In this document: positions 66 to 41,310 of the stretch, piece by piece | How positions within the stretch are numbered: the first letter of the stretch is position 1 | Layout of the letters: each line of letters starts with the position of its first letter | Source of the DNA: a virus | Strand: one strand, 5' to 3' | Length of the DNA stretch: 41,310 nucleotides | IMG/VR virus record: IMGVR_UViG_3300031507_000018 | Location: 1-41,310 of that record | The notes under the pieces: generated by a model | The model's database searches: none | Told to the model about the DNA's origin: nothing | Seen by the model: only the letters and a program-made list of their open reading frames with translations | Position numbers and translations under genes: made by a program

Positions 66-776
66 CTACCTGCCGGCCCTTCCACCGAACGCGTCGGGCT
101 CTCCCGTCGGCTCCGCCGGTGCAGCGGCGGCCGGCCCGAGCGCTTCGCGTAGTGCAGCGACAGCATTGCCCACCTCTTCCTCGTCGAGCGGCTCTGCATG
201 CTCATGCGACCACTTCAGGTAGTACCGCCACGTCGAGCACAGCTCCTCGGCCGCTCGCCGCAGGGCTGGCGTCTCGTCTCTCACGGGCGCCGCCGTACCT
301 GTCGCGCTCGTCCAGCCCGTGAATGTGGTGCCGGTCGCGTCCTCACCCAGGCCGACGGCGGGCGCCGGTGCAGCGGGTTCGATGGCCGCGAGGATGTCGT
401 AGGCTTGTCGCAGCGTGCCACGTAGCTCGTCGGCACACTCAGCCCAGTTGCCCATGTTGCGCTCGCGTGACCAGCCAGCACGCAACACCCTCATCGCTTT
501 TGCGACGTGGTCCTGGTCGGAGGCCCTATCGGCGGGCGCCGGTGCAGCGGAGGGGTGGGCTCCGAACTCGCCTCGCTCGATTGAGTCGGCGAGACCGCGC
601 TGGTCGTCGAACTCCTCTGCTCCGCCGTCACGAATAGCTGCGGCGATGCCGCACCGAACGCGTCGCTCGACATCGTCGGCCCGCCCTTCTCTCGTAGCGG
701 GGGCCGCCGCACTGGGAGGGTAGCCGCGTTCGGCTCTGGCCATCTCCTCGTACTCGTTCGGCTCGTCATCGGGCAT
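66..776 (-). CDS. Ala/Pro-linked modular protein of unknown function, 236 aa
   Basis: I do not recognise a family. The protein looks like beads on a string: helical, charged segments separated by four Ala/Pro-rich linkers, near residues 21-30 (SAAAPATREG), 76-84 (SAAPAPADR), 135-142 (PAAPAPAV) and 217-226 (PAAAAPAEPT). The segments between include a Trp-containing stretch with RAGWSRERNMGNW and a C-terminal helical stretch with STWRYYLKWSHEHAEPL. Two linkers are encoded by an exact 21-base repeat (356-376 and 530-550). The ATG at 776 overlaps the end of the upstream XF1762-like gene by 11 bases. Nothing shows a catalytic site; it could be a multi-module host-interaction protein, which is only a guess. 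Confidence 0.75.
   Translation of the reverse strand: MPDDEPNEYEEMARAERGYPPSAAAPATREGRADDVERRVRCGIAAAIRDGGAEEFDDQRGLADSIERGEFGAHPSAAPAPADRASDQDHVAKAMRVLRAGWSRERNMGNWAECADELRGTLRQAYDILAAIEPAAPAPAVGLGEDATGTTFTGWTSATGTAAPVRDETPALRRAAEELCSTWRYYLKWSHEHAEPLDEEEVGNAVAALREALGPAAAAPAEPTGEPDAFGGRAGR
356..550. repeat. dispersed 21-base repeat encoding Ala/Pro linkers
   Basis: CGGCGGGCGCCGGTGCAGCG followed by G occurs exactly at 356-376 and 530-550, and its last 14-15 bases recur at 113-127. All three copies lie inside the same gene and encode, on the minus strand, AAPAPA-type linkers. The coordinates given span the two exact copies. Confidence 0.8.
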
Positions 777-1516
777 GGGTCACCTCCGGGTGCTGCGTTG
801 CTCGCAGGTCTTTCGTTGCGGGTTTGCGGTTGAGCCACATGCGCCAGCGGCGTTTCGGCCCCTCGGGCTGGTCCCGGCGCCGGCCAGGGCGTGACCCCTC
901 GCGCCCCTCGCCGTGTGTCGGCTGGATGCCCTCGTCGATCCATCCTGCCGCACGCAGCGACACGCCGGACTCTTCTGGAAGCGTGAAGGTCTGAATGCTG
1001 TCGAAGCCCATCGCATCGGCCGCGCGAGCACAGCGCGAGTAGAGGAAGCTGCACGCGTTGCGGTGACCGTTCGTCGAGACGCGAGACACCTCGGCGATGC
1101 GGTACTGGTCGGTGTTCCTGGCACGCGGGCGAGCAACGACGCCGATGCCGACGATTTCGGAGCCGCTCACAGCACCGATGGCGAACCGGAAGCCCTGCAC
1201 GCGCTTGTGGTGGCGGTGCCAGCGGCGGATGCCTTCGTTCGCCTGGTCTCGCGTGAGCGGCATCGCGGCCAGATGACTGCCCCTACCCACGCTCGCGGCC
1301 CCCCTCTGGTGTAGCGGGGGCCGCCGCGTGCTCGCTCTTGCAGTCATCGTCCCGGCCGATGCAGTCCAGCGAATGCTCGCTCGGACGCCACGCCGCCGAC
1401 TGCATTCCACCGCCGCAGAATCGGCAGTACCCGCGCTTGTTGCGGAGCGTCGCGACAGGCAGCGCGAACGGTTCGGGCTCCGCTTCGGGCCCCTCTGGTG
1501 TAACGGGGGCCGGGGT
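684..1516. repeat. second dispersed linker repeat, encodes A-P-[AV]-T-x-E-G
   Basis: A C/T-rich motif followed by a run of G (CCCTCTGGTGTA, then A or G, then CGGGGGCC) occurs at 1303-1325 and 1490-1512. A diverged copy lies at 684-710. All three are in frame and encode (A)AP(A/V)TPEG or APATREG on the minus strand, in two neighbouring genes. The span covers all copies; most of the sequence between them is ordinary coding DNA. Confidence 0.7.
766..1263 (-). CDS. XF1762-family protein (GNAT-like fold), 165 aa
   Basis: It resembles the XF1762 family of small phage and plasmid proteins, related to N-acetyltransferases. Residues 7-31 carry the family signature WHRHH followed by VQGFRFAIG; residues 61-86 carry the second one, RVSTNGHRNACSFLY and then RAADAMGF. 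The C-terminal 50 residues are basic and Arg/Lys-rich, longer than the core family. I start at ATG 1263; GTG at 1290, preceded by AGAGGGGGG, is a credible alternative that would add nine residues and overlap the upstream gene. The substrate is unknown for the family. It lies in the early block between a zinc-type small protein and the modular 236-residue protein. Confidence 0.8.
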   Translation of the reverse strand: MPLTRDQANEGIRRWHRHHKRVQGFRFAIGAVSGSEIVGIGVVARPRARNTDQYRIAEVSRVSTNGHRNACSFLYSRCARAADAMGFDSIQTFTLPEESGVSLRAAGWIDEGIQPTHGEGREGSRPGRRRDQPEGPKRRWRMWLNRKPATKDLRATQHPEVTHAR

Positions 1517-4053: not shown

Positions 4054-4341
4054 CTACTCCCCTCGCAGAAGCCGACGTCGCCGGGTCGGAGGAGCGGACA
4101 GCTGGGTGGTTGAGTCGTCCGGGCCTGCGATATCGCCCAGGTCCAGCACCCCGGTATCCCCAAGGGCCAGGTGGTCTCGCACTGCCTTGGCTCGCCGCTG
4201 AAGCTGCTCCCTCGATGCGTCCATCGCCGTCGCGAGGACCGGCAGGTCACCCAGGCCGCGGGAGTCAGCGACGCGCTCGAGCCATTCGAGGTGAGCGTCC
4301 AGGTCGGCGAGCAGGAGCTCGAGCGGGTCGATGTCGGTCAC
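4054..4341 (-). CDS. helical acidic/basic small protein of the lysis cassette, 95 aa
   Basis: GTG start at 4341 overlaps the upstream TGA (GTGA). Residues 1-60 are predicted helical and amphipathic (LELLLADLDAHLEWLERV, then ASREQLQRRAKAVRDHL). The tail is Ser/Thr/Pro-rich and ends in RRRRLLRGE. No membrane segment or signal peptide is visible. Position between the membrane coiled-coil protein and the lysozyme-like protein suggests an accessory lysis role. Confidence 0.65.
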   Translation of the reverse strand: MTDIDPLELLLADLDAHLEWLERVADSRGLGDLPVLATAMDASREQLQRRAKAVRDHLALGDTGVLDLGDIAGPDDSTTQLSAPPTRRRRLLRGE

Positions 4342-4706
4342 CGGCTCTCCCCTGGCCCAGTGTCCGACGTGGGCCGCGGCGTCCGGCCGCGCAGGGGCTG
4401 GTGCCGCCCCGACGGCGGCCGGAGTTGCTCGACAGGCGTCAGGTCGGACGAGAGGACTTGCTCGATCTTGCCCAGCCGGACCTCGGTGTCCTGGAACCGA
4501 TCGGCGTCATCGTGTCGGTGCTCCGTGGCCGCGTCCTCGTGCTTGTCGAGCCGCTTGACGATTGACCGGAGCGCCTCGGCCATCGTCCCGAGCCGACTCA
4601 TGATCGTCGCGTAGGCGGCCCCGCCTGCGGCCGCGGTGACGAGCAGGGTCGCGACCACCCCGACGGCGAGAGTCCCGGAGGACAGGTCGACGGCCTCGGC
4701 GATCAC
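4338..4706 (-). CDS. single-pass membrane coiled-coil protein of the lysis cassette, 122 aa
   Basis: GTG start at 4706 overlaps the holin stop (GTGA). A single transmembrane segment (GTLAVGVVATLLVTAAAGGA, about residues 11-33) is followed by a charged helix with heptad character (MSRLGTMAEALRSIVKRLDK through RFQDTEVRLGKIEQVL, to about residue 85) and a Pro/Arg-rich tail. An N-anchored helix next to a holin fits an i-spanin or a holin-regulating (antiholin-like) protein. No matching outer-membrane spanin is seen in the cassette. Assignment is by architecture, not homology. Confidence 0.65.
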   Translation of the reverse strand: MIAEAVDLSSGTLAVGVVATLLVTAAAGGAAYATIMSRLGTMAEALRSIVKRLDKHEDAATEHRHDDADRFQDTEVRLGKIEQVLSSDLTPVEQLRPPSGRHQPLRGRTPRPTSDTGPGESR

Positions 4707-4936
4707 CGGGGCAGCGCCTCGTTGGACGGCGACTCGGCCCACGCCTTGGCGACCTCGGCCGCCTTCGGACTGGGCAGGCTCAGGTGGTGCGCGGCGTCGA
4801 CCAGGCCCTGCGCTCCGAGGTAGACCATCACCAACTCGGCCACCATCGTCCAGTCCCCGGCCATGCCAGCGGTGATGCACGCGGCCACAGTGGCCCACAG
4901 CTTCTTCGAGGTGAGGGCTTCCCGGAGCTTCGCCAT
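4703..4936 (-). CDS. phage holin, 77 aa
   Basis: Short basic N-terminus (MAKLREALTSKKLW), then two hydrophobic segments at about residues 13-28 (WATVAACITAGMAG) and 31-47 (MVAELVMVYLGAQGL), followed by a hydrophilic tail. The KLR-SKKLWATVA start and YLGAQGLVDAA region resemble a common family of small phage holins that begin with K-K-x-W and end the second helix with Y-x-G-x-Q-G-x-A-D. ATG at 4936 is the first gene of the inverted lysis cassette; its start codon lies in a CCATGG that also offers a plus-strand ATG. It would form the membrane lesion that times lysis. Confidence 0.7.
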   Translation of the reverse strand: MAKLREALTSKKLWATVAACITAGMAGDWTMVAELVMVYLGAQGLVDAAHHLSLPSPKAAEVAKAWAESPSNEALPR

Positions 4937-5297
4937 GGGGTCGAGGCTGACACGATTCGCATGCTCGACGCAACCAGTAGTTGCAAACTACCCTCATCTG
5001 TGCTCACACTGCGGACAGGTGCTTGACGTGGCCAAGGAACGCGACCGGGAGTGCCGACACGGCACCGCAGGGGCCCGCCATGAGCCGGCCCTGTGCTCGG
5101 TATGCTCCTGGGGCTTGGCCTACGTCCCGAACCATCGCCGCGTCATGGACGGCCGAGAGGGCGACATCATCGCGGCCGTCTACCTGCAGCACGGCTACAC
5201 GGTCGAGCGCTTCGCAGCTCCGCGTGTCGAGCCGGCCAACCCGTCGAAGTCATGTGGCAATCCGTTCAAGTGGAACGCCCCGCGAGGCCGCACATGA
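4935..5297 (+). CDS. zinc-ribbon-like protein, start uncertain, up to 120 aa
   Basis: Two cysteine pairs, LCSHCGQV near residue 23 and ALCSVCSW near residue 53, separated by CRHGTAGARH, suggest a zinc ribbon. Then YVPNHRRVMDGREGDIIAA and YLQHGYTVERFAA follow. ATG at 4935 is the only standard start that keeps both pairs, but it puts a perfect inverted repeat (4977-4991) inside the gene. CTG at 4998, GTG at 5019 or GTG at 5028 are alternatives. The stop overlaps the next ATG (ATGA at 5294), so the frame is well supported even if the start is not. Confidence 0.6.
   Translation: MGSRLTRFACSTQPVVANYPHLCSHCGQVLDVAKERDRECRHGTAGARHEPALCSVCSWGLAYVPNHRRVMDGREGDIIAAVYLQHGYTVERFAAPRVEPANPSKSCGNPFKWNAPRGRT
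4977..4991. promoter_or_regulatory. perfect inverted repeat, candidate operator
   Basis: GTAGTT-GCA-AACTAC is a perfect six-base inverted repeat with a three-base centre. It lies about 40 bases upstream of the holin start and at the beginning of the late plus-strand operon, where divergent transcription must be set. A repressor site is the natural reading; no clear sigma70 hexamers flank it. Confidence 0.5.
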
Positions 5298-14622: not shown

Positions 14623-15834
14623 ATGGTCGACCGCCGAGCACACGCCTTCCTCGATCCCGCTGCGTCGGAGCCCGTGCACCGACAGCAGGTCGAGGCGGCG
14701 TTGCAGCGGCTTGCCAGACTGATCGCAGCGAACACGACGGCCGACGGGGCGCTGGAGAACCGCGTCATCGACCTGGAAGACGCCCCGGGCGGCTACACAG
14801 CGGAGAACGCCCGCGATGACGTCGGGGCCGCGCTCGTTGCTGGGACGGGGATTTCAATCACCGTCTCGGACGTCGGCGACACGATCACGATAGCCAACAC
14901 GATCGCGGCCGTCACCGACGAGCACATTCAGGACGTCGTCGGTGCGATGGTGGTGGCCGGGACGGGGATTAGTGTCAGCTACAACGACGCGGGCGCGACC
15001 GAAACGATCACCTGCACGATCACCCAGTACACGGATGAAATGGCCCGCGACGCGCTGGGCACGGCTCTGATCGCGGGCACGGGGATCACGATCACGCCCA
15101 ACGACGGTGCGGACACGATCACGATCACCAACACCGTGTCCGCGACAACGCAGGAGCAGGTCGAGGACTGGGTGGGCGCCCTGGTCATCGAGGGGCACGG
15201 CATCGACATCACCTACAACGACGGGGCGGGCACGCTGACAGTGGCCGTCGACGAGACGGAGATCGATCTGACCGCCGACAACATCGTCGAAGGCTCGGGC
15301 GTCATTGTCCTCGCGCGCTCGGCTACGGCACAGGCCGTCACCAACACCGCAGCGGTCACGGACATACTCGCGTACACGATCCCCGCAAACACGCTCACCG
15401 CGGCTCGAAAGCTCCGCGTGAAGATGGGCGGCACCTACGTGAACAACTCCGGCGGCACGCGAGCCCCGGTATGGTCGATCGTTCTACCAGGCGCAGGTGG
15501 GACGATCTGGGGCGACACGGCATCCGCGAACGGGGCGTCGGCGCTCGAGCGCCCCTGGTCGATCGAGTTCGAGATCGCATGCGTGTCATCGACGCTCGTG
15601 CACATGGTCGGCGCCTTCCGATGGGGGCCAACCAACGTGCCGACGACGGGCCTCGGGTTTCTCGGATCGGGCGGCGGGTTGCTGATCGACGCCGCGATCA
15701 CCAGCGCGACCGCGGGCACGACCGTCTCAGCCCTGACGAGCGATCGACTGCTGTCGGTGAACTTCAACCACCCGACCAACACGGCAACGCAGACGCTGAC
15801 CCGTACGGAGTACAGCGTGGAGCTACTGCCATGA
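14623..15834 (+). CDS. tail-fibre-like protein with four tandem repeats, 403 aa
   Basis: Residues 1-57 form a helical attachment region (HRQQVEAALQRLARLIAANT). Residues 58 to about 210 are four repeats of 39 residues of the form Y-T-D-E-x-A-R-D-x-[VL]-G-x-A-L-[VI]-A-G-T-G-I, then a T-I-T-I strand pair. These shaft repeats are common in phage fibres and trimerise. Residues 215-403 form a globular beta-rich domain (MGGTYVNNSGGTRAPVWSIV, MVGAFRWGPT), the likely receptor-facing part. It lies within the head/tail genes rather than with the terminal fibres. Confidence 0.75.
   Translation: MVDRRAHAFLDPAASEPVHRQQVEAALQRLARLIAANTTADGALENRVIDLEDAPGGYTAENARDDVGAALVAGTGISITVSDVGDTITIANTIAAVTDEHIQDVVGAMVVAGTGISVSYNDAGATETITCTITQYTDEMARDALGTALIAGTGITITPNDGADTITITNTVSATTQEQVEDWVGALVIEGHGIDITYNDGAGTLTVAVDETEIDLTADNIVEGSGVIVLARSATAQAVTNTAAVTDILAYTIPANTLTAARKLRVKMGGTYVNNSGGTRAPVWSIVLPGAGGTIWGDTASANGASALERPWSIEFEIACVSSTLVHMVGAFRWGPTNVPTTGLGFLGSGGGLLIDAAITSATAGTTVSALTSDRLLSVNFNHPTNTATQTLTRTEYSVELLP
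14794..15252 (+). repeat. four tandem 117-base coding repeats (fibre shaft)
   Basis: Units begin near 14794, 14911, 15028 and 15145 and encode 39-residue repeats centred on GTGI[ST]I or, in the last, GHGIDI. DNA identity is moderate, so the duplication is not recent. The last unit is the most diverged (VIEGHGIDITYNDGAGTLTV). Confidence 0.75.
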
Positions 15835-15839
15835 GCGCG

Positions 15840-16160
15840 CTACCGGCAGTGACCGAGGAAACCACCGTCTGGGACGTCACAGTGCAAGCCTCCGCCCGTG
15901 CAGTCGTAGTTGGTCCTGCATCTACACTCGGTGTAGGCGCCGAGGATGTCATCGCATCCACCGGTGCACCAGTCGGGGCACTCCAGCGGGTCGAACGACT
16001 CCGACGAGCTGCTATCCTCGCTACTCGACGAGGTGCCGTCGGAGCTCGAGCTGCTCTCCTGTGCGCTCGTTGTCATCGGGAGCGTCGTGCCGGCGACGTG
16101 ATCGTCAGGCCCTTCGGAGAAGCATCCGCTCAGCACCAGGCACAGAAGCACGCGTCGCAT
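15840..16160 (-). CDS. antisense lipoprotein with serine linker and cysteine-rich domain, 106 aa
   Basis: A secreted lipoprotein gene inserted antisense inside the late operon. The signal peptide MRRVLLCLVLSGC has lipobox L10-S-G-C13. A serine-run linker (about residues 35-54, SSSSSDGTSSSSEDSSSS) leads to a compact C-terminus with eight cysteines (61, 65, 69, 79, 81, 87, 94, 105). GGGAGG lies nine bases before the ATG at 16160. The style matches lipoproteins of Nannocystis/Plesiocystis-like myxobacteria, suggesting a gene captured from the host (a moron). Phage lipoprotein morons often block superinfection by masking receptors; that role here is inference. It stops six bases from the end of the opposed fibre gene. 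Confidence 0.85.
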   Translation of the reverse strand: MRRVLLCLVLSGCFSEGPDDHVAGTTLPMTTSAQESSSSSDGTSSSSEDSSSSESFDPLECPDWCTGGCDDILGAYTECRCRTNYDCTGGGLHCDVPDGGFLGHCR

Positions 16161-16231
16161 CTCTCTCAGCCTCCCACGATCCGAACCGCTGTCCAGGCTG
16201 TGCGCGCGTTCAGCGTGCAGGACGGTGTTCC

Positions 16232-16645
16232 GTGCCGTTGAACTTCCAGAACGTCCCGCTGGCCCTGGTCGGAGTCGACCAGAAGCGCCACCGTCTCACC
16301 CGCGGCGCAGGCACGCTCGACCGGGCGATCAACGTCACCTTCGAGAAGGTCGGCGAGCAGGTCGTTGCGTCCAAGCGACTCGGCTACCAGCGGGTCGACT
16401 GCACGGAGAGCGTCGGATCTTTCGCAGCGGATTCTGTGTGGACGGCCTGCGCGGCGACGCCCGGTGGCGAACTCGTCTTGTTCGGCCATCGTTGGGTGTT
16501 CGGTGTGGTGTCACCCGACGAACTCCTGCGCGGTGAGGATTCGATCGTCCTGCGCGGGCCGGCAAACCGCGGCAACGCGCGCGCTACATTCGTCTCACAG
16601 TCGCGGATCTCCCAGTCGGTCACCGACGACACGGAGATCGCATGA
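16232..16645 (+). CDS. tail protein, N-terminal module encoded separately, 137 aa
   Basis: GTG start at 16232. Residues 14-50 (DQKRHRLTRGAGTLDRAINV, then EKVGEQVVASKRLGYQRV) follow a pattern typical of the beginning of large podovirus tail/stabiliser proteins: a statement of selected residues, a gene list of N-V-x-F and a K-R-x-G-Y strand. Here this module ends and the 1214-residue protein begins in an ATGA overlap, so the usual single protein appears split in two. It would help form the short tail or its junction with the adaptor. Confidence 0.65.
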   Translation: MPLNFQNVPLALVGVDQKRHRLTRGAGTLDRAINVTFEKVGEQVVASKRLGYQRVDCTESVGSFAADSVWTACAATPGGELVLFGHRWVFGVVSPDELLRGEDSIVLRGPANRGNARATFVSQSRISQSVTDDTEIA

Positions 16646-20289: not shown

Positions 20290-21492
20290 ATGGCGCTGTA
20301 TGACGCAAGTGTTTCCGCGAGCCCGAACCTGTGGGACCAAGGTGCAGACGCCAAGCAGAACATGCTGAAAGGCCTTGGCAGCAACCGGCCGATGATCGGC
20401 CAGAACAACTACGCCGGCAATGCGCAGGCGTACGGCCAGACGGGCCTCGCCGGGCAGATGCAGGCGATGGAGATGTTCCGCAACAACGCGAACGGCACCG
20501 GCGGCCCGTCACTCGCGCAACTGCAGATGCAGCAAGGGATGGAGCAGTCGCAGCGCGGCGCGATGGGCCTCATGGGCCAGACGCGCGGAGGCAACCTGGC
20601 GGGTGCGTACTCGCAGGCCCTCGGTGCGCAGTCGGGCGCGATGGCCAACACGAACCAGCAAGCCGGGATGCTCCGCGCGCAGGAGCAACTCGCCGCCCAG
20701 CAAGCCTACGCGGGCATGTCCAACCAGATGGCCGGGCAGGGCCTCGCATACGACCAACTGAATCTACAGAACGCGCTTGGCCAGGACCAAAACTCGCTTG
20801 GGTGGTACTCGGCGAAACGCGGGATGGACCTGCAGCAGACGCAAGCGAACCGAGGGTTCTACACGGACCTGATCAAGACCGGGATGGGGGTCGTCGGCGA
20901 CGTCGCGAAGATGGGAGCCATGTCCGACGTCCGCGCGAAGGAGGACATGCAGCCATACGACCCGGCCGCCGCAGCAGCGGAGGTGCAGCCGCTCGCATAC
21001 CGCTACAAGCCCGGCATGGGCCAGCCGGAAGGTCAGCAACTCGGCGTCTCGGCTCAGCAGCTCGCCGGCACGTCACTGGGCTCGACGCTCGTCCAGCAGG
21101 GGCCCGACGGGATGCTCAACATCGACGGCGGCCGAGCGGGGATCGCCGCTCTCGCAGCCTCGGGGGAGAACTCCCGGCGATTGCGGATGATGGAGCAGCA
21201 ACTTGCACAGGGGAGCGAAGGCGGCTCGATGGCCCAGCGCTACGGCACCCGCGACGAGGGCATGGCGAACGAACGCCGGGCGCAGATGCTGTCGGACGAC
21301 ATCTCCGCGCAGCGTGGCCTCGCCTCGGTACGCCGTGACCAGCCACCGGAGTACGACTTCAGCGGCTCGCCGCAGATGCGCCGCGGCGGAGCGCAGACGA
21401 TCGACCCGTTCTCGCAGAGCACCGTCGGGCCGAACACGACTCAAGGGCTCGCGGGGCTGCGGGCCCGCTACTTCCCGGAGCTGGCTCTCTGA
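20290..21492 (+). CDS. internal virion/ejection protein with S74-like segment, 400 aa
   Basis: Residues 1-200 are Gln/Met/Ala-rich and helical (LQMQQGMEQSQRGAMGLMGQ), as in DNA-ejection proteins. Residues 211-258 carry MSDVRAKEDMQPYDP, LAYRYKPG and QLGVSAQQLA, the hallmark of intramolecular-chaperone (peptidase S74-like) domains, whose consensus runs SD-x-R-x-K and then G-x-x-AQ. The rest is hydrophilic. Finding this segment in the middle of a helical virion protein rather than at a fibre C-terminus is common in some podoviruses, and its cleavage is uncertain. Confidence 0.7.
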   Translation: MALYDASVSASPNLWDQGADAKQNMLKGLGSNRPMIGQNNYAGNAQAYGQTGLAGQMQAMEMFRNNANGTGGPSLAQLQMQQGMEQSQRGAMGLMGQTRGGNLAGAYSQALGAQSGAMANTNQQAGMLRAQEQLAAQQAYAGMSNQMAGQGLAYDQLNLQNALGQDQNSLGWYSAKRGMDLQQTQANRGFYTDLIKTGMGVVGDVAKMGAMSDVRAKEDMQPYDPAAAAAEVQPLAYRYKPGMGQPEGQQLGVSAQQLAGTSLGSTLVQQGPDGMLNIDGGRAGIAALAASGENSRRLRMMEQQLAQGSEGGSMAQRYGTRDEGMANERRAQMLSDDISAQRGLASVRRDQPPEYDFSGSPQMRRGGAQTIDPFSQSTVGPNTTQGLAGLRARYFPELAL

Positions 21493-30400: not shown

Positions 30401-30954
30401 GGCTGGTCCAGATCATCCGCACGAGCGCGGATGTCCATGGCGACGAACTTCCTGCAACGAAGGTGAGTCGCTTCGAGTCGCTCGGCTACGGATCGCAGTT
30501 CGGCAGCGATGGCCTTGTCGGTGCCTGCGCGCATCGCATCCATCATCGTCTGGAAGTCAGCAAGAGCCGACGCCAGGTCCACCAGGCCGAGGGCCTCGGC
30601 GACTCGGGAGCGCCAGGCGAGCCACTCGGGGAGGAGCATCGACGCATTGTGGCCACCATCGATGACCTCGTCCAAGGCCGCCGCCGCATCGTACACGCAC
30701 TCGTCATCGTCGAGGCTGTGCTGAAACTCGCTGCGCTCCAGCCACGGAGGGATGGTCGTCTCGTCGGCAGCTTCCTCGCGCATCAACGACTCGTACGCTG
30801 CGATGAGCGAGGCGTCCTCCGTCAGTGCCCACCGGCCCCACGGCCCAGTACGACCGTCGCGGAGAGAAACGAAGTAGCCTTCCGGCTGCTTGATGACGCG
30901 GATGTTGTCTCCGACGCCCACCTGCTGCGTGCTGTTCTTCTTCTCGTCGGTCAT
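30397..30954 (-). CDS. unknown two-part protein, 185 aa
   Basis: ATG at 30954 overlaps the HNH stop. Residues 15-60 form a compact beta-like part (NIRVIKQPEGYFVSLRDGRT, GPWGRWALTEDASLIAAYES); residues 90-185 are helical, with the DKAIAAELR module shared with the next gene. The front part resembles small phage proteins that display a parameter-like sheet, but no family is certain. Confidence 0.65.
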   Translation of the reverse strand: MTDEKKNSTQQVGVGDNIRVIKQPEGYFVSLRDGRTGPWGRWALTEDASLIAAYESLMREEAADETTIPPWLERSEFQHSLDDDECVYDAAAALDEVIDGGHNASMLLPEWLAWRSRVAEALGLVDLASALADFQTMMDAMRAGTDKAIAAELRSVAERLEATHLRCRKFVAMDIRARADDLDQP

Positions 30955-31403
30955 CGGGGCTCCGGATGCTGGCCTGCTCGAGGTCGTCGCGAGGGTTGGT
31001 AGAGACGCCATTTGTGTCGCTTGCACGCCCTGCAAAAGCGATTCACACGACCGCTAGAGTAGCCGGTGTTAGCGGCGTCGTACGCGTGGCCTTGCGGGCA
31101 GTGAGTGCGGTTTCTCTGGAGGTCCCCTTGCGTACCTCGACGTATGTTCTCCTGCAGCGTCACGGCTTCCAGATGGTCGGGGTTGCAGCAGCAGCGCTGC
31201 CGGCACAGGCGGTCGAGTTGCAGGCCGGCGGGGATCGGTCCGCGGTGATGCTCATACGCCATCCGATGGGCAGCGACTCCGCGTCTACCAAGGGAGAAGC
31301 GGCCGTATCCGCCTCGGTCGATGGTTCCGATCCACAGCCAGCACCCGGTGTTCGGTTCGACCTGGTACTTCGCCTCAAACCGCGCAAGCGTCTTCTCGTC
31401 CAC
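30951..31403 (-). CDS. HNH homing-type endonuclease 2, 150 aa
   Basis: The phage-type HNH fold: N-terminal EPNTGCWLWIGTI, the core HRMAYEHHRGPIPAGLQLDR, LCRQRCCCNPDHLEAVT, and a zinc-knuckle C-terminus (THCPQGHAYD, NRFCRACKRHK). The usual first catalytic His of LDHLC is Arg here (LDRLC), so cutting may be impaired. GTG at 31403 overlaps the start of a 110-codon frame that begins MIKLASREEL, as though this gene were inserted there. Paralogous to copies at 32501-33016 and across the window ends. Confidence 0.85.
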   Translation of the reverse strand: MDEKTLARFEAKYQVEPNTGCWLWIGTIDRGGYGRFSLGRRGVAAHRMAYEHHRGPIPAGLQLDRLCRQRCCCNPDHLEAVTLQENIRRGTQGDLQRNRTHCPQGHAYDAANTGYSSGRVNRFCRACKRHKWRLYQPSRRPRAGQHPEPR

Positions 31404-32178: not shown

Positions 32179-32504
32179 GCCGCCTCCTTCGCCACCACGG
32201 GGAGGCCGAGCTTCTTCTCCGCGTGGTCGGCGAGAGCCTTGTACTCGGAGTACGCCGTGCCGATGAGCTGCTCGCGCTTGCTCTTGAGCCAGTTCATCGC
32301 CCGCGCCCATCGAGCGATACGGCCGGTGAGCCAGGCCTTGCGCCGGTCGGTCTTCGCCTTCGCGAGGCGGCGGCGGAAGTCTCCGATCTTCCCGTTCATG
32401 TAGCCGACCAGCATGTCGATGCCGTGGGCTGCGAGGTGGTCGATGATCCAGCGGCCGATCTTGCGCGCCAGGTTGAGCAGGCCGTTGCGGGTGAGTGTGT
32501 TCAT
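32175..32504 (-). CDS. basic amphipathic helical protein, 109 aa
   Basis: ATG at 32504 overlaps the HNH stop. It starts with an amphipathic segment (NGLLNLARKIGRWIIDHLAA), followed by Lys/Arg/Trp-rich helices (DFRRRLAKAKTDRRKAWLTG, IARWARAMNWLKSKREQLIG). The profile suits a peripheral membrane or nucleic-acid binding protein. It lies in the amidase neighbourhood, so a lysis-accessory role is possible. No family recognised. Confidence 0.65.
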   Translation of the reverse strand: MNTLTRNGLLNLARKIGRWIIDHLAAHGIDMLVGYMNGKIGDFRRRLAKAKTDRRKAWLTGRIARWARAMNWLKSKREQLIGTAYSEYKALADHAEKKLGLPVVAKEAA

Positions 32505-33016
32505 TCTGCAGCTTCCTTGTCGTCACTGCCCTCGTCTTCGACTGGGATCGGCTCTCCGGGCATGTTGAGGCCGAGTCGGTTCTTTCGTCGTCTAGTGGCC
32601 GCGTCGCGCTCACAGGCTCTACATCGGCGAGCGCCTGTAGATCTGACGAACGTGTTGCGCTCGTCGAACGTGTGCCCGCGCAGGCAGTGGGTCTTGCTCC
32701 TGTTCAGGCGTCCACAGGCAACCTTGTCACACCTGGCCATGTTCTCCGCGTGCGTGACCGGTTCTAGGTGAGCCGGGTTGCAGCAGCATCTCTGACGGCA
32801 GAGGTGATCGAGTTGCAGTCCCTTGGGTATCGGGCCGATGTAGTGCTCATAGCTGAGCCGATGTGCGTAGCCCATGCGCGGCCCAGGCCCTCGCTTGCTG
32901 CCAATCACAAGCTCACCATATCCTGCCGACGTCTGTGCACCGACCCACAGCCAGCACGCCGTGTTGGGCTCGATGTGTACGTACTTCTCGAAGCGCTGCA
33001 GCTGTTCCGGTGTCAT
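32501..33016 (-). CDS. HNH homing-type endonuclease 3, 171 aa
   Basis: ATG at 33016 has GGAGG five bases upstream and overlaps the amidase stop (ATGA). The HNH motif is complete: LQLDHLCRQRCCCNPAHL (about 68-84), then EPVTHAENMAR, and the zinc part THCLRGHTFD and RRCRACERD. It is the most intact of the three paralogues. An acidic tail (PIPVEDEGSDDKEAAE) is particular to this copy. Probably a mobile element exploiting the amidase-region DNA. Confidence 0.85.
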   Translation of the reverse strand: MTPEQLQRFEKYVHIEPNTACWLWVGAQTSAGYGELVIGSKRGPGPRMGYAHRLSYEHYIGPIPKGLQLDHLCRQRCCCNPAHLEPVTHAENMARCDKVACGRLNRSKTHCLRGHTFDERNTFVRSTGARRCRACERDAATRRRKNRLGLNMPGEPIPVEDEGSDDKEAAE

Positions 33017-33630
33017 TCCAACCTCCATGACACCGGGATCGGTAGACCGGTTCCCAGGTGGAGGTCGCGAACATCCGCAAGTCCAAGGTCCATGCGCACG
33101 CGCTCGGCGACGTGCTTCCAGATCCGCGAGCCCGGGTCCGTCGTCCGGCTCTTGTGGCCCTGACGATGCGCCCAGATGCCTCGCACAGCCCCACCGAGCT
33201 CGCTCACCTGGCCGATGTAGAAGCGGCACAGGTCGACCGCCGCGACGAGCTGGACGTCCGTGGCTTCGTGCACGAGGTCGGCCATATGCTTTCCCTCGGC
33301 GATCTCTGCGGAGCTACGCCAGAACGTCGACGCGTCCCCTTCGGTGCCGGCTGCTCGGCAAGCGATCTCGATCCCGATCGTCCCGCCGTTGAGCGCGTTG
33401 CCGTGGTAGACGACGCTGGTCGGGTGGTGCAGCAGCGACACCGATCCGTCGCGGTGCACCATCGCATGCGCGGGCACCTTCGACAGGCCCTTGTGTGTGG
33501 GTGGAAAGTCGGCCGTGGCGGTCTGGTGCAGCGTGACCCCGACGATCTGGCCGGGCTTGCGGGTACGCTGGACTTCGCCGCGGGAGTCCTTCGGTCGGGG
33601 CGTGTCGCGTAGGTCGTTGACGATGTTCAT
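33013..33630 (-). CDS. N-acetylmuramoyl-L-alanine amidase (endolysin), 205 aa
   Basis: An amidase_2/PGRP-type zinc enzyme that cuts the bond between muramic acid and the stem peptide. GVTLHQTA supplies H35; VPAHAMVHRDGSV and YHGNALNGGTIGIEI are the family core; GIWAHRQGHKSRTTDPG gives H155, K160 and D165, completing the zinc site. No signal peptide or cell-wall-binding domain is seen, so holin-mediated release is likely. It lies in the early block, away from the holin cassette. Its stop is coupled to HNH gene 3. Confidence 0.85.
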   Translation of the reverse strand: MNIVNDLRDTPRPKDSRGEVQRTRKPGQIVGVTLHQTATADFPPTHKGLSKVPAHAMVHRDGSVSLLHHPTSVVYHGNALNGGTIGIEIACRAAGTEGDASTFWRSSAEIAEGKHMADLVHEATDVQLVAAVDLCRFYIGQVSELGGAVRGIWAHRQGHKSRTTDPGSRIWKHVAERVRMDLGLADVRDLHLGTGLPIPVSWRLE

Positions 33631-40805: not shown

Positions 40806-40906
40806 CGGCCACCCCGCAGCAGTCCGTGGACCAAGCCGGCGCCCACGAAGAACGCCAGGGCGATGAGAAGGGCGCAGAGGAACGCGGTGTCGTCGAGGTG
40901 GGTCAT
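40802..40906 (-). CDS. 34-residue single-pass membrane protein
   Basis: ATG at 40906 overlaps the HNH 1 stop, and its TGA overlaps the next ATG. The product is MTHLDDTAFLCALLIALAFF, then VGAGLVHGLLRGGR: one hydrophobic helix with a polar N-end and an Arg-rich C-end, so N-out/C-in by the positive-inside rule. Both couplings support translation. Function unknown; small phage membrane peptides often target host envelope proteins. Confidence 0.6.
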   Translation of the reverse strand: MTHLDDTAFLCALLIALAFFVGAGLVHGLLRGGR

Positions 40907-41310
40907 CGCGACGCCTCCGCCTTCCGTGCTTGGTACCGGCGTGTGGCCGCAGACTGGCATGCTCTGCACGTTCGCTTTCCGGGTCGACCGCCGAGGTTGC
41001 GGCCCGAGTACTCGTGACCCTGGGGGCAGTGCGTGATGTTCCGCCAGCGCTCTGCCGCGCCTCCTCTCCTCACGTTCTCGCTATGCGTGACGGCCTCCAA
41101 GTGGTCGGGGTTCACGCACTGCCTGGTACGACATAGGTGGTCGATCTCCAGGGCAGACGGGATCGGGCCTTTGTAATGCTCGTAGCTCACGCGATGCGCG
41201 AGGAGCTTCCTATGTGTGCCAGCACGCTTGCTACCGCACCAGAACATCCCGTAGTGCTCGTTCTGAGTGTTGCCGATCCACAACCAGCACCCGGTGTTCG
41301 GCTCGACCTG
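40903..41310 (-). CDS. HNH endonuclease 1, 3' part (gene begins at 62 across the circle)
   Basis: The window ends inside this gene. From 41310 down it reads QVEPNTGCWLWIGNTQNEHY, LEIDHLCRTRQCVNPDHLEA, VTHSENVRRG, and a zinc part THCPQGHEYSG and KRTCRACQSAA. The catalytic IDHLC and NPDHL motifs are intact. Joined to 1-62 through the terminal repeat it makes about 148 residues. It is closest to HNH gene 2 in its first 30 residues, while the rest differs more. Confidence 0.85.
   Translation of the reverse strand, partial: QVEPNTGCWLWIGNTQNEHYGMFWCGSKRAGTHRKLLAHRVSYEHYKGPIPSALEIDHLCRTRQCVNPDHLEAVTHSENVRRGGAAERWRNITHCPQGHEYSGRNLGGRPGKRTCRACQSAATRRYQARKAEASR
41288..41310. repeat. terminal direct repeat, right copy
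   Basis: Identical to 1-23. See the left copy for meaning. Confidence 0.9.

What the first reader, a model, noticed from the sequence alone, without database searches (positions are those of the whole stretch)
15840..16160. Host-style lipoprotein moron antisense within the late operon, pointing to a myxobacterial host
A complete lipoprotein gene with its own ribosome site runs against the late operon between a fibre gene and a tail gene. Seen: lipobox L-S-G-C13, a serine-run linker, eight cysteines in the last 46 residues. Known: lipoprotein morons in other phages (for example T5 Llp) block receptors and exclude superinfecting phage. Inferred: the Ser-run plus Cys-rich style resembles Nannocystis/Plesiocystis-type Myxococcota lipoproteins, so this gene may mark the host and give it immunity. 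Phages of that group are little described.
Basis: partly seen in the sequence, partly recalled or inferred. Interest (0 to 1): 0.8.

Follow-up and report, generated by a model that had tools for sequence, protein, structure and literature searches.

The report
Small antisense phage lipoprotein beside fibre
A phage without close known relatives carries, backwards between two tail genes, a small gene for a fat-anchored, cysteine-rich surface protein; its position matches that of the proteins phages T1 and T5 use to stop a second phage entering the same cell, but its sequence matches nothing held here and its host is not known.

Summary
A 106-codon ORF lies at 15840-16160 on the minus strand, with an SD-like GGGAGG, a short type II signal peptide (MRRVLLCLVLSG|C13), a Ser/Asp/Glu linker in mixed codons and eight Cys in the last 46 residues. 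Its third-position GC (0.80) fits the phage's genes; the competing plus-strand ORF (15831-16241) has an inverted pattern (0.57). Shuffled windows give about 0.08 such SD-plus-lipobox ORFs each. The gene lies 5 bp tail-to-tail with a repeat-bearing tail-fibre gene, on the strand of the recombination/modification (presumed early) genes. In T1 and T5, the superinfection-exclusion lipoprotein genes cor and llp are likewise antisense beside the tail-tip/receptor-binding block; in temperate N15 and phi80, cor is on the tail strand. Best explanation: a Cor/Llp-like receptor-blocking lipoprotein, by analogy only (no sequence similarity; four likely disulfides rather than one). The myxobacterial host is not supported by anything I could test: no homolog in genomes, viruses, phages or plasmids; Sak4 points to Pseudomonadota, Mom and HNH genes to actinophages. 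Myxococcota could not be searched systematically, so the host is open.

The parts
15840..16160 (-). lipoprotein gene, 106 aa (signal peptide 1-12, lipidated Cys13, acidic Ser-rich linker about 14-57, Cys-rich domain 58-106)
   Evidence: ORF, SD, lipobox, GC3 0.80, shuffles, Cys enrichment
16170..16175 (-). Shine-Dalgarno-like GGGAGG, 9 nt upstream of the ATG
   Evidence: sequence read directly
16161..16231 (.). 71-bp gap between the lipoprotein start (-) and the next tail gene's GTG (+); must hold the leader of both, no sigma-70-like promoter found
14623..15834 (+). tail-fibre-like protein with four repeats of about 39 aa (AGTGI-type), convergent with the lipoprotein gene, stops 5 bp apart
   Evidence: repeats; phrog_697 structural protein; tail protein of Erythrobacter phage XM05 and YadA-type structural proteins of cyanophages
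16232..16645 (+). next late-operon gene, 137 aa, unknown, probably structural; coding pattern clear
   Evidence: GC3 and codon score
15831..16241 (+). competing plus-strand ORF opposite the lipoprotein gene; judged a shadow ORF
   Evidence: inverted codon-position GC (0.77, 0.59, 0.57), no family hits

Best explanation
The gene makes a small lipoprotein that is exported by Sec, lipidated on Cys13 and anchored in the host's outer membrane (or cytoplasmic membrane, if the host is Gram-positive), with a flexible acidic Ser-rich tether and a compact disulfide-bonded head. It is most likely expressed early, from the minus strand that carries the recombination and DNA-modification genes, rather than with the late operon. 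There it would occupy or jam the receptor recognised by the neighbouring fibre, so that the infected cell, and later its debris, no longer adsorbs related phages (superinfection exclusion, as Cor and Llp do). Shown: gene, signal, domain layout, position, strand. Inferred: membrane location, early timing, receptor blocking.
For: Gene and signal. Position next to a fibre gene. Same layout for proven exclusion lipoproteins: T1 cor is on the minus strand, 21 bp tail-to-tail with the plus-strand genes that follow the tail-tip gene; T5 llp is divergent from and directly beside the receptor-binding gene oad. In temperate N15 and phi80, cor is on the tail strand, so antisense placement was seen in the two virulent phages, where expression apart from the late operon is wanted. 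The literature places the cor locus immediately downstream of the tail-fibre gene and ties it to receptor identity (PMC13164509), and shows Llp blocking FhuA (PMC9586334). The window's minus strand holds the Sak4, RusA, Dam and Mom-like genes, usually early genes.
Against: No sequence similarity to Cor or Llp (best phmmer E 0.076 in a four-sequence set), and a different design: three or four Cys in those, ten here. No relatives, so no conservation of the gene or its position can be shown. No promoter found. The fibre is not proven to be the receptor-binding protein; a Peptidase_S74 protein at 20290-21492 is another candidate. Phage lipoproteins can also be spanins or lysogenic-conversion factors.
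Confidence: 0.5

Rival explanations
1. A host-derived cargo (conversion) gene: a bacterial surface lipoprotein picked up by the phage that alters the host's surface for adhesion, protease resistance or predation, not specifically phage exclusion.
For: Bacterial-style modular lipoprotein with linker and Cys-rich head; antisense, separately expressed placement is typical of cargo genes (established knowledge).
Against: No bacterial homolog found; no integrase or repressor recognised among the genes searched, so lysogeny, where conversion pays, is not indicated (the gene set was not exhaustive); GC close to the phage's own, so no sign of recent import.
Confidence: 0.25
2. An outer-membrane spanin subunit (o-spanin, Rz1-like), acting in lysis.
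For: O-spanins are small phage lipoproteins with short signal peptides (established knowledge).
Against: It lies 17 kb from the amidase at 33013-33630 and is not nested in or beside an i-spanin-like gene; Cys-rich and Ser-rich rather than Pro-rich; no PHROG lysis hit.
Confidence: 0.07
3. A shadow ORF; the plus strand (15831-16241) is the gene, or the region is non-coding.
For: ATGA overlap of the plus ORF with the fibre stop; GC-rich DNA is full of antisense ORFs; the codon score of the lipoprotein frame is only near neutral (-0.02), perhaps because of its odd amino-acid make-up; signal peptide short.
Against: Plus ORF codon-position GC inverted (GC3 0.57) and score negative (-0.18); SD plus lipobox about 0.08 expected per shuffled window; Cys enrichment P about 2e-7.
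Confidence: 0.1

Closest known systems
Cor superinfection-exclusion lipoprotein of phage T1 (Drexlerviridae)
   Same: small lipoprotein gene, antisense, tail-to-tail (21 bp there, 5 bp here) at the edge of tail genes that follow the tail-tip/fibre gene
   Different: no sequence similarity; 75 aa with three Cys against 106 aa with ten; no linker of Ser residues; T1 has two accompanying membrane-protein genes, none seen here
Llp lytic-conversion lipoprotein of phage T5
   Same: lipoprotein gene on the opposite strand directly beside the receptor-binding protein gene; acts by jamming the receptor FhuA (PMC9586334)
   Different: divergent rather than convergent; annotated promoter; 77 aa, three Cys; no sequence similarity
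Ltp-type lipoproteins of Streptococcus thermophilus temperate phages
   Same: surface lipoprotein that excludes superinfecting phage (PMC3952083, abstract)
   Different: Gram-positive host and temperate phage; relation not tested by sequence here
Cys-rich, Ser-linker lipoproteins of Polyangia (Nannocystis, Plesiocystis)
   Different: no member could be fetched or matched with these tools

Membership tests
Bacterial lipoprotein (type II signal peptide) | positively charged n-region, hydrophobic core, lipobox [LVI][ASTVI][GAS]C | tested here: met
   MRR-VLLCLVL-SG-C, lipobox LSGC
Bacterial lipoprotein (type II signal peptide) | signal peptide of usual length (Cys at 15-35 in the PROSITE rule, recalled) | tested here: not met
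   Cys at 13, core of seven residues; the length is a usual, not an absolute, feature, hence 'predicted lipoprotein' rather than certain
Cor/Llp superinfection-exclusion lipoproteins | sequence similarity to Cor or Llp | tested here: not met
   T1 Cor tblastn finds 169 phage records, the window lipoprotein none
Cor/Llp superinfection-exclusion lipoproteins | gene beside the receptor-binding/tail-fibre gene | tested here: met
   fibre-like gene ends 5 bp away; that this fibre binds the receptor is inferred
Cor/Llp superinfection-exclusion lipoproteins | blocks adsorption of superinfecting phage | not testable with these tools
   needs the host and phage
Phage moron (strict sense) | own promoter and terminator, expressed apart from flanking genes | tested here: inconclusive
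   opposite strand, but no sigma-70 promoter or terminator found; host promoters unknown
Phage moron (strict sense) | present in some relatives, absent in others at the same site | tested here: inconclusive
   no structural relatives found to compare
Myxococcota lipoprotein | homologs in Myxococcota genomes | tested here: inconclusive
   collection-wide scan of 84,980 species gave none at E 1e-3, but it needs an exact 8-residue match; no Myxococcota genome could be drawn for tblastn

The most novel reading that the evidence does not exclude
The phage does infect a myxobacterium, and its lipoprotein is a disulfide-rich exclusion factor of a new family. [quoted passage not shown]
Probability: 0.05. 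Interest if true: 0.85.

Novelty: new variant of a known kind. Interest (0 to 1): 0.4.

Why it matters
If right, it is an exclusion lipoprotein in the Cor/Llp position but with an unrelated, disulfide-rich design, in a podovirus-like phage lineage with no relatives found. It would show that placing an antisense lipoprotein gene beside the fibre recurs independently, which gives a practical rule for finding exclusion genes in uncultured phages by position rather than sequence.

Tried and rejected
Homolog searches for the lipoprotein in viral contigs, genome contigs, phages, plasmids, PDB, Pfam, NCBIfam and PHROGs: nothing credible. Structure prediction of the lipoprotein (pLDDT 51.5) and of the fibre's C-terminal part (pLDDT 46): too poor for a fold search, so none was run. 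Relatives by terminase, portal, capsid, 1214-aa tail protein and fibre: none in IMG/VR. Sak4 relatives share no structural gene with the window apart from very weak terminase matches in two records. A weak match in a Xanthomonas genome (E 0.0024, frame with a stop) was taken as chance. The plus-strand ORF as the real gene was rejected on codon-position GC. Literature on Nannocystis phages: nothing relevant among the 10 papers listed of 13.

Full report
What is there. The window is a whole virus record of 41,310 bases (completeness of the genome not known). The head genes resemble SU10 (capsid, adaptor) with a P22-like portal and a distant terminase. The late genes run on the plus strand from about 5.9 to 29.8 kb. 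The recombination and modification genes (Sak4, RusA, Dam, Mom-like) and the amidase are on the minus strand. The lipoprotein gene at 15840-16160 is the exception inside the late block: it lies on the minus strand.

Is it a gene? Length is no argument, since the window has 230 ORFs of at least 80 aa. Four things are. (1) GGGAGG stands 9 nt before the ATG and no alternative ATG, GTG or TTG start lies upstream in frame. (2) MRR-VLLCLVL-SG-C is a lipoprotein signal, short but with a perfect lipobox; SD plus lipobox is expected 0.08 times per shuffled window. (3) The third-position GC of 0.80 is close to that of this phage's clear genes (0.82-0.92), whereas the opposite ORF shows 0.57. (4) Eight Cys in 46 residues against a background of 1.4% gives P about 2e-7, and the Ser stretch is spelled with four codons. 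The codon score of the frame is near neutral (-0.02), as one may expect for a protein so rich in Ser and Cys, and is the weakest point.

What is next to it? The plus-strand gene that ends 5 bp away encodes four repeats of about 39 residues of the AGTGI type. It matches phrog_697 (structural protein), a tail protein of Erythrobacter phage XM05 and YadA-type structural proteins of cyanophages. The gene on the other side (16232-16645) and the 1214-aa gene after it are clearly coding but match nothing.

Relatives. None for the lipoprotein anywhere searched. None for the structural genes in IMG/VR. The Sak4 gene has relatives, the closest (52%) in Xanthomonas, then Stenotrophomonas and other Pseudomonadota. 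The Mom-like and HNH genes are closest to those of Streptomyces phage Samy, Clavibacter phages and other actinophages. These genes move between phages, so the host remains open.

How it probably works. In T1, cor is a minus-strand lipoprotein gene ending 21 bp from the plus-strand genes that follow the tail-tip gene. In T5, llp is on the opposite strand directly beside the receptor-binding gene oad. In the temperate phages N15 and phi80, cor is on the tail strand. Cor and Llp block the receptor FhuA (PMC9586334; PMC13164509), and the cor-adjacent locus tracks receptor identity (PMC13164509). The window's gene has the same kind of product, neighbour and antisense placement, on the strand of presumed early genes. 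I therefore take it as an exclusion lipoprotein by analogy, at 0.5. It is not a member of Cor/Llp: no similarity and a different cysteine plan.

The myxobacterial claim. Nothing here tests it well: the genome-wide scan needs exact 8-residue matches and no Myxococcota genome could be drawn. Negative draws from three phyla (733 genomes) say only that it is not widespread there. I put a myxobacterial host at about 0.3.

Verdict. A real, orphan lipoprotein gene in the position of known exclusion genes. Interest 0.4: a good positional analogy and an unusual protein, but function and host are inferred.

Noticed in passing
766-1314 (-): Mom-like DNA modification gene (phrog_1384, E 2e-27), closest to Streptomyces phage Samy and Microbacterium phage Min1; the phage may modify its DNA against restriction.
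   Followed up: partly
30951-31403, 32501-33229, 40903-41283 (-): Three paralogous HNH-endonuclease-like genes spread through the minus-strand block; the one searched resembles actinophage HNH endonucleases.
   Followed up: partly
5901-29812 (+): The structural module (terminase, portal, capsid, large tail proteins) has no relative found in IMG/VR by single-protein scans, only SU10-like and P22-like profile matches: apparently an undescribed podovirus-like lineage.
   Followed up: partly
20290-21492 (+): Protein with a Peptidase_S74 intramolecular chaperone match placed in the middle (212-258 of 400), a second fibre or spike candidate.
   Followed up: no
4338-4997 (-): One hydrophobic, transmembrane-like segment followed by a possible coiled coil, no family match; possible holin or inner-membrane spanin far from the amidase.
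   Followed up: no
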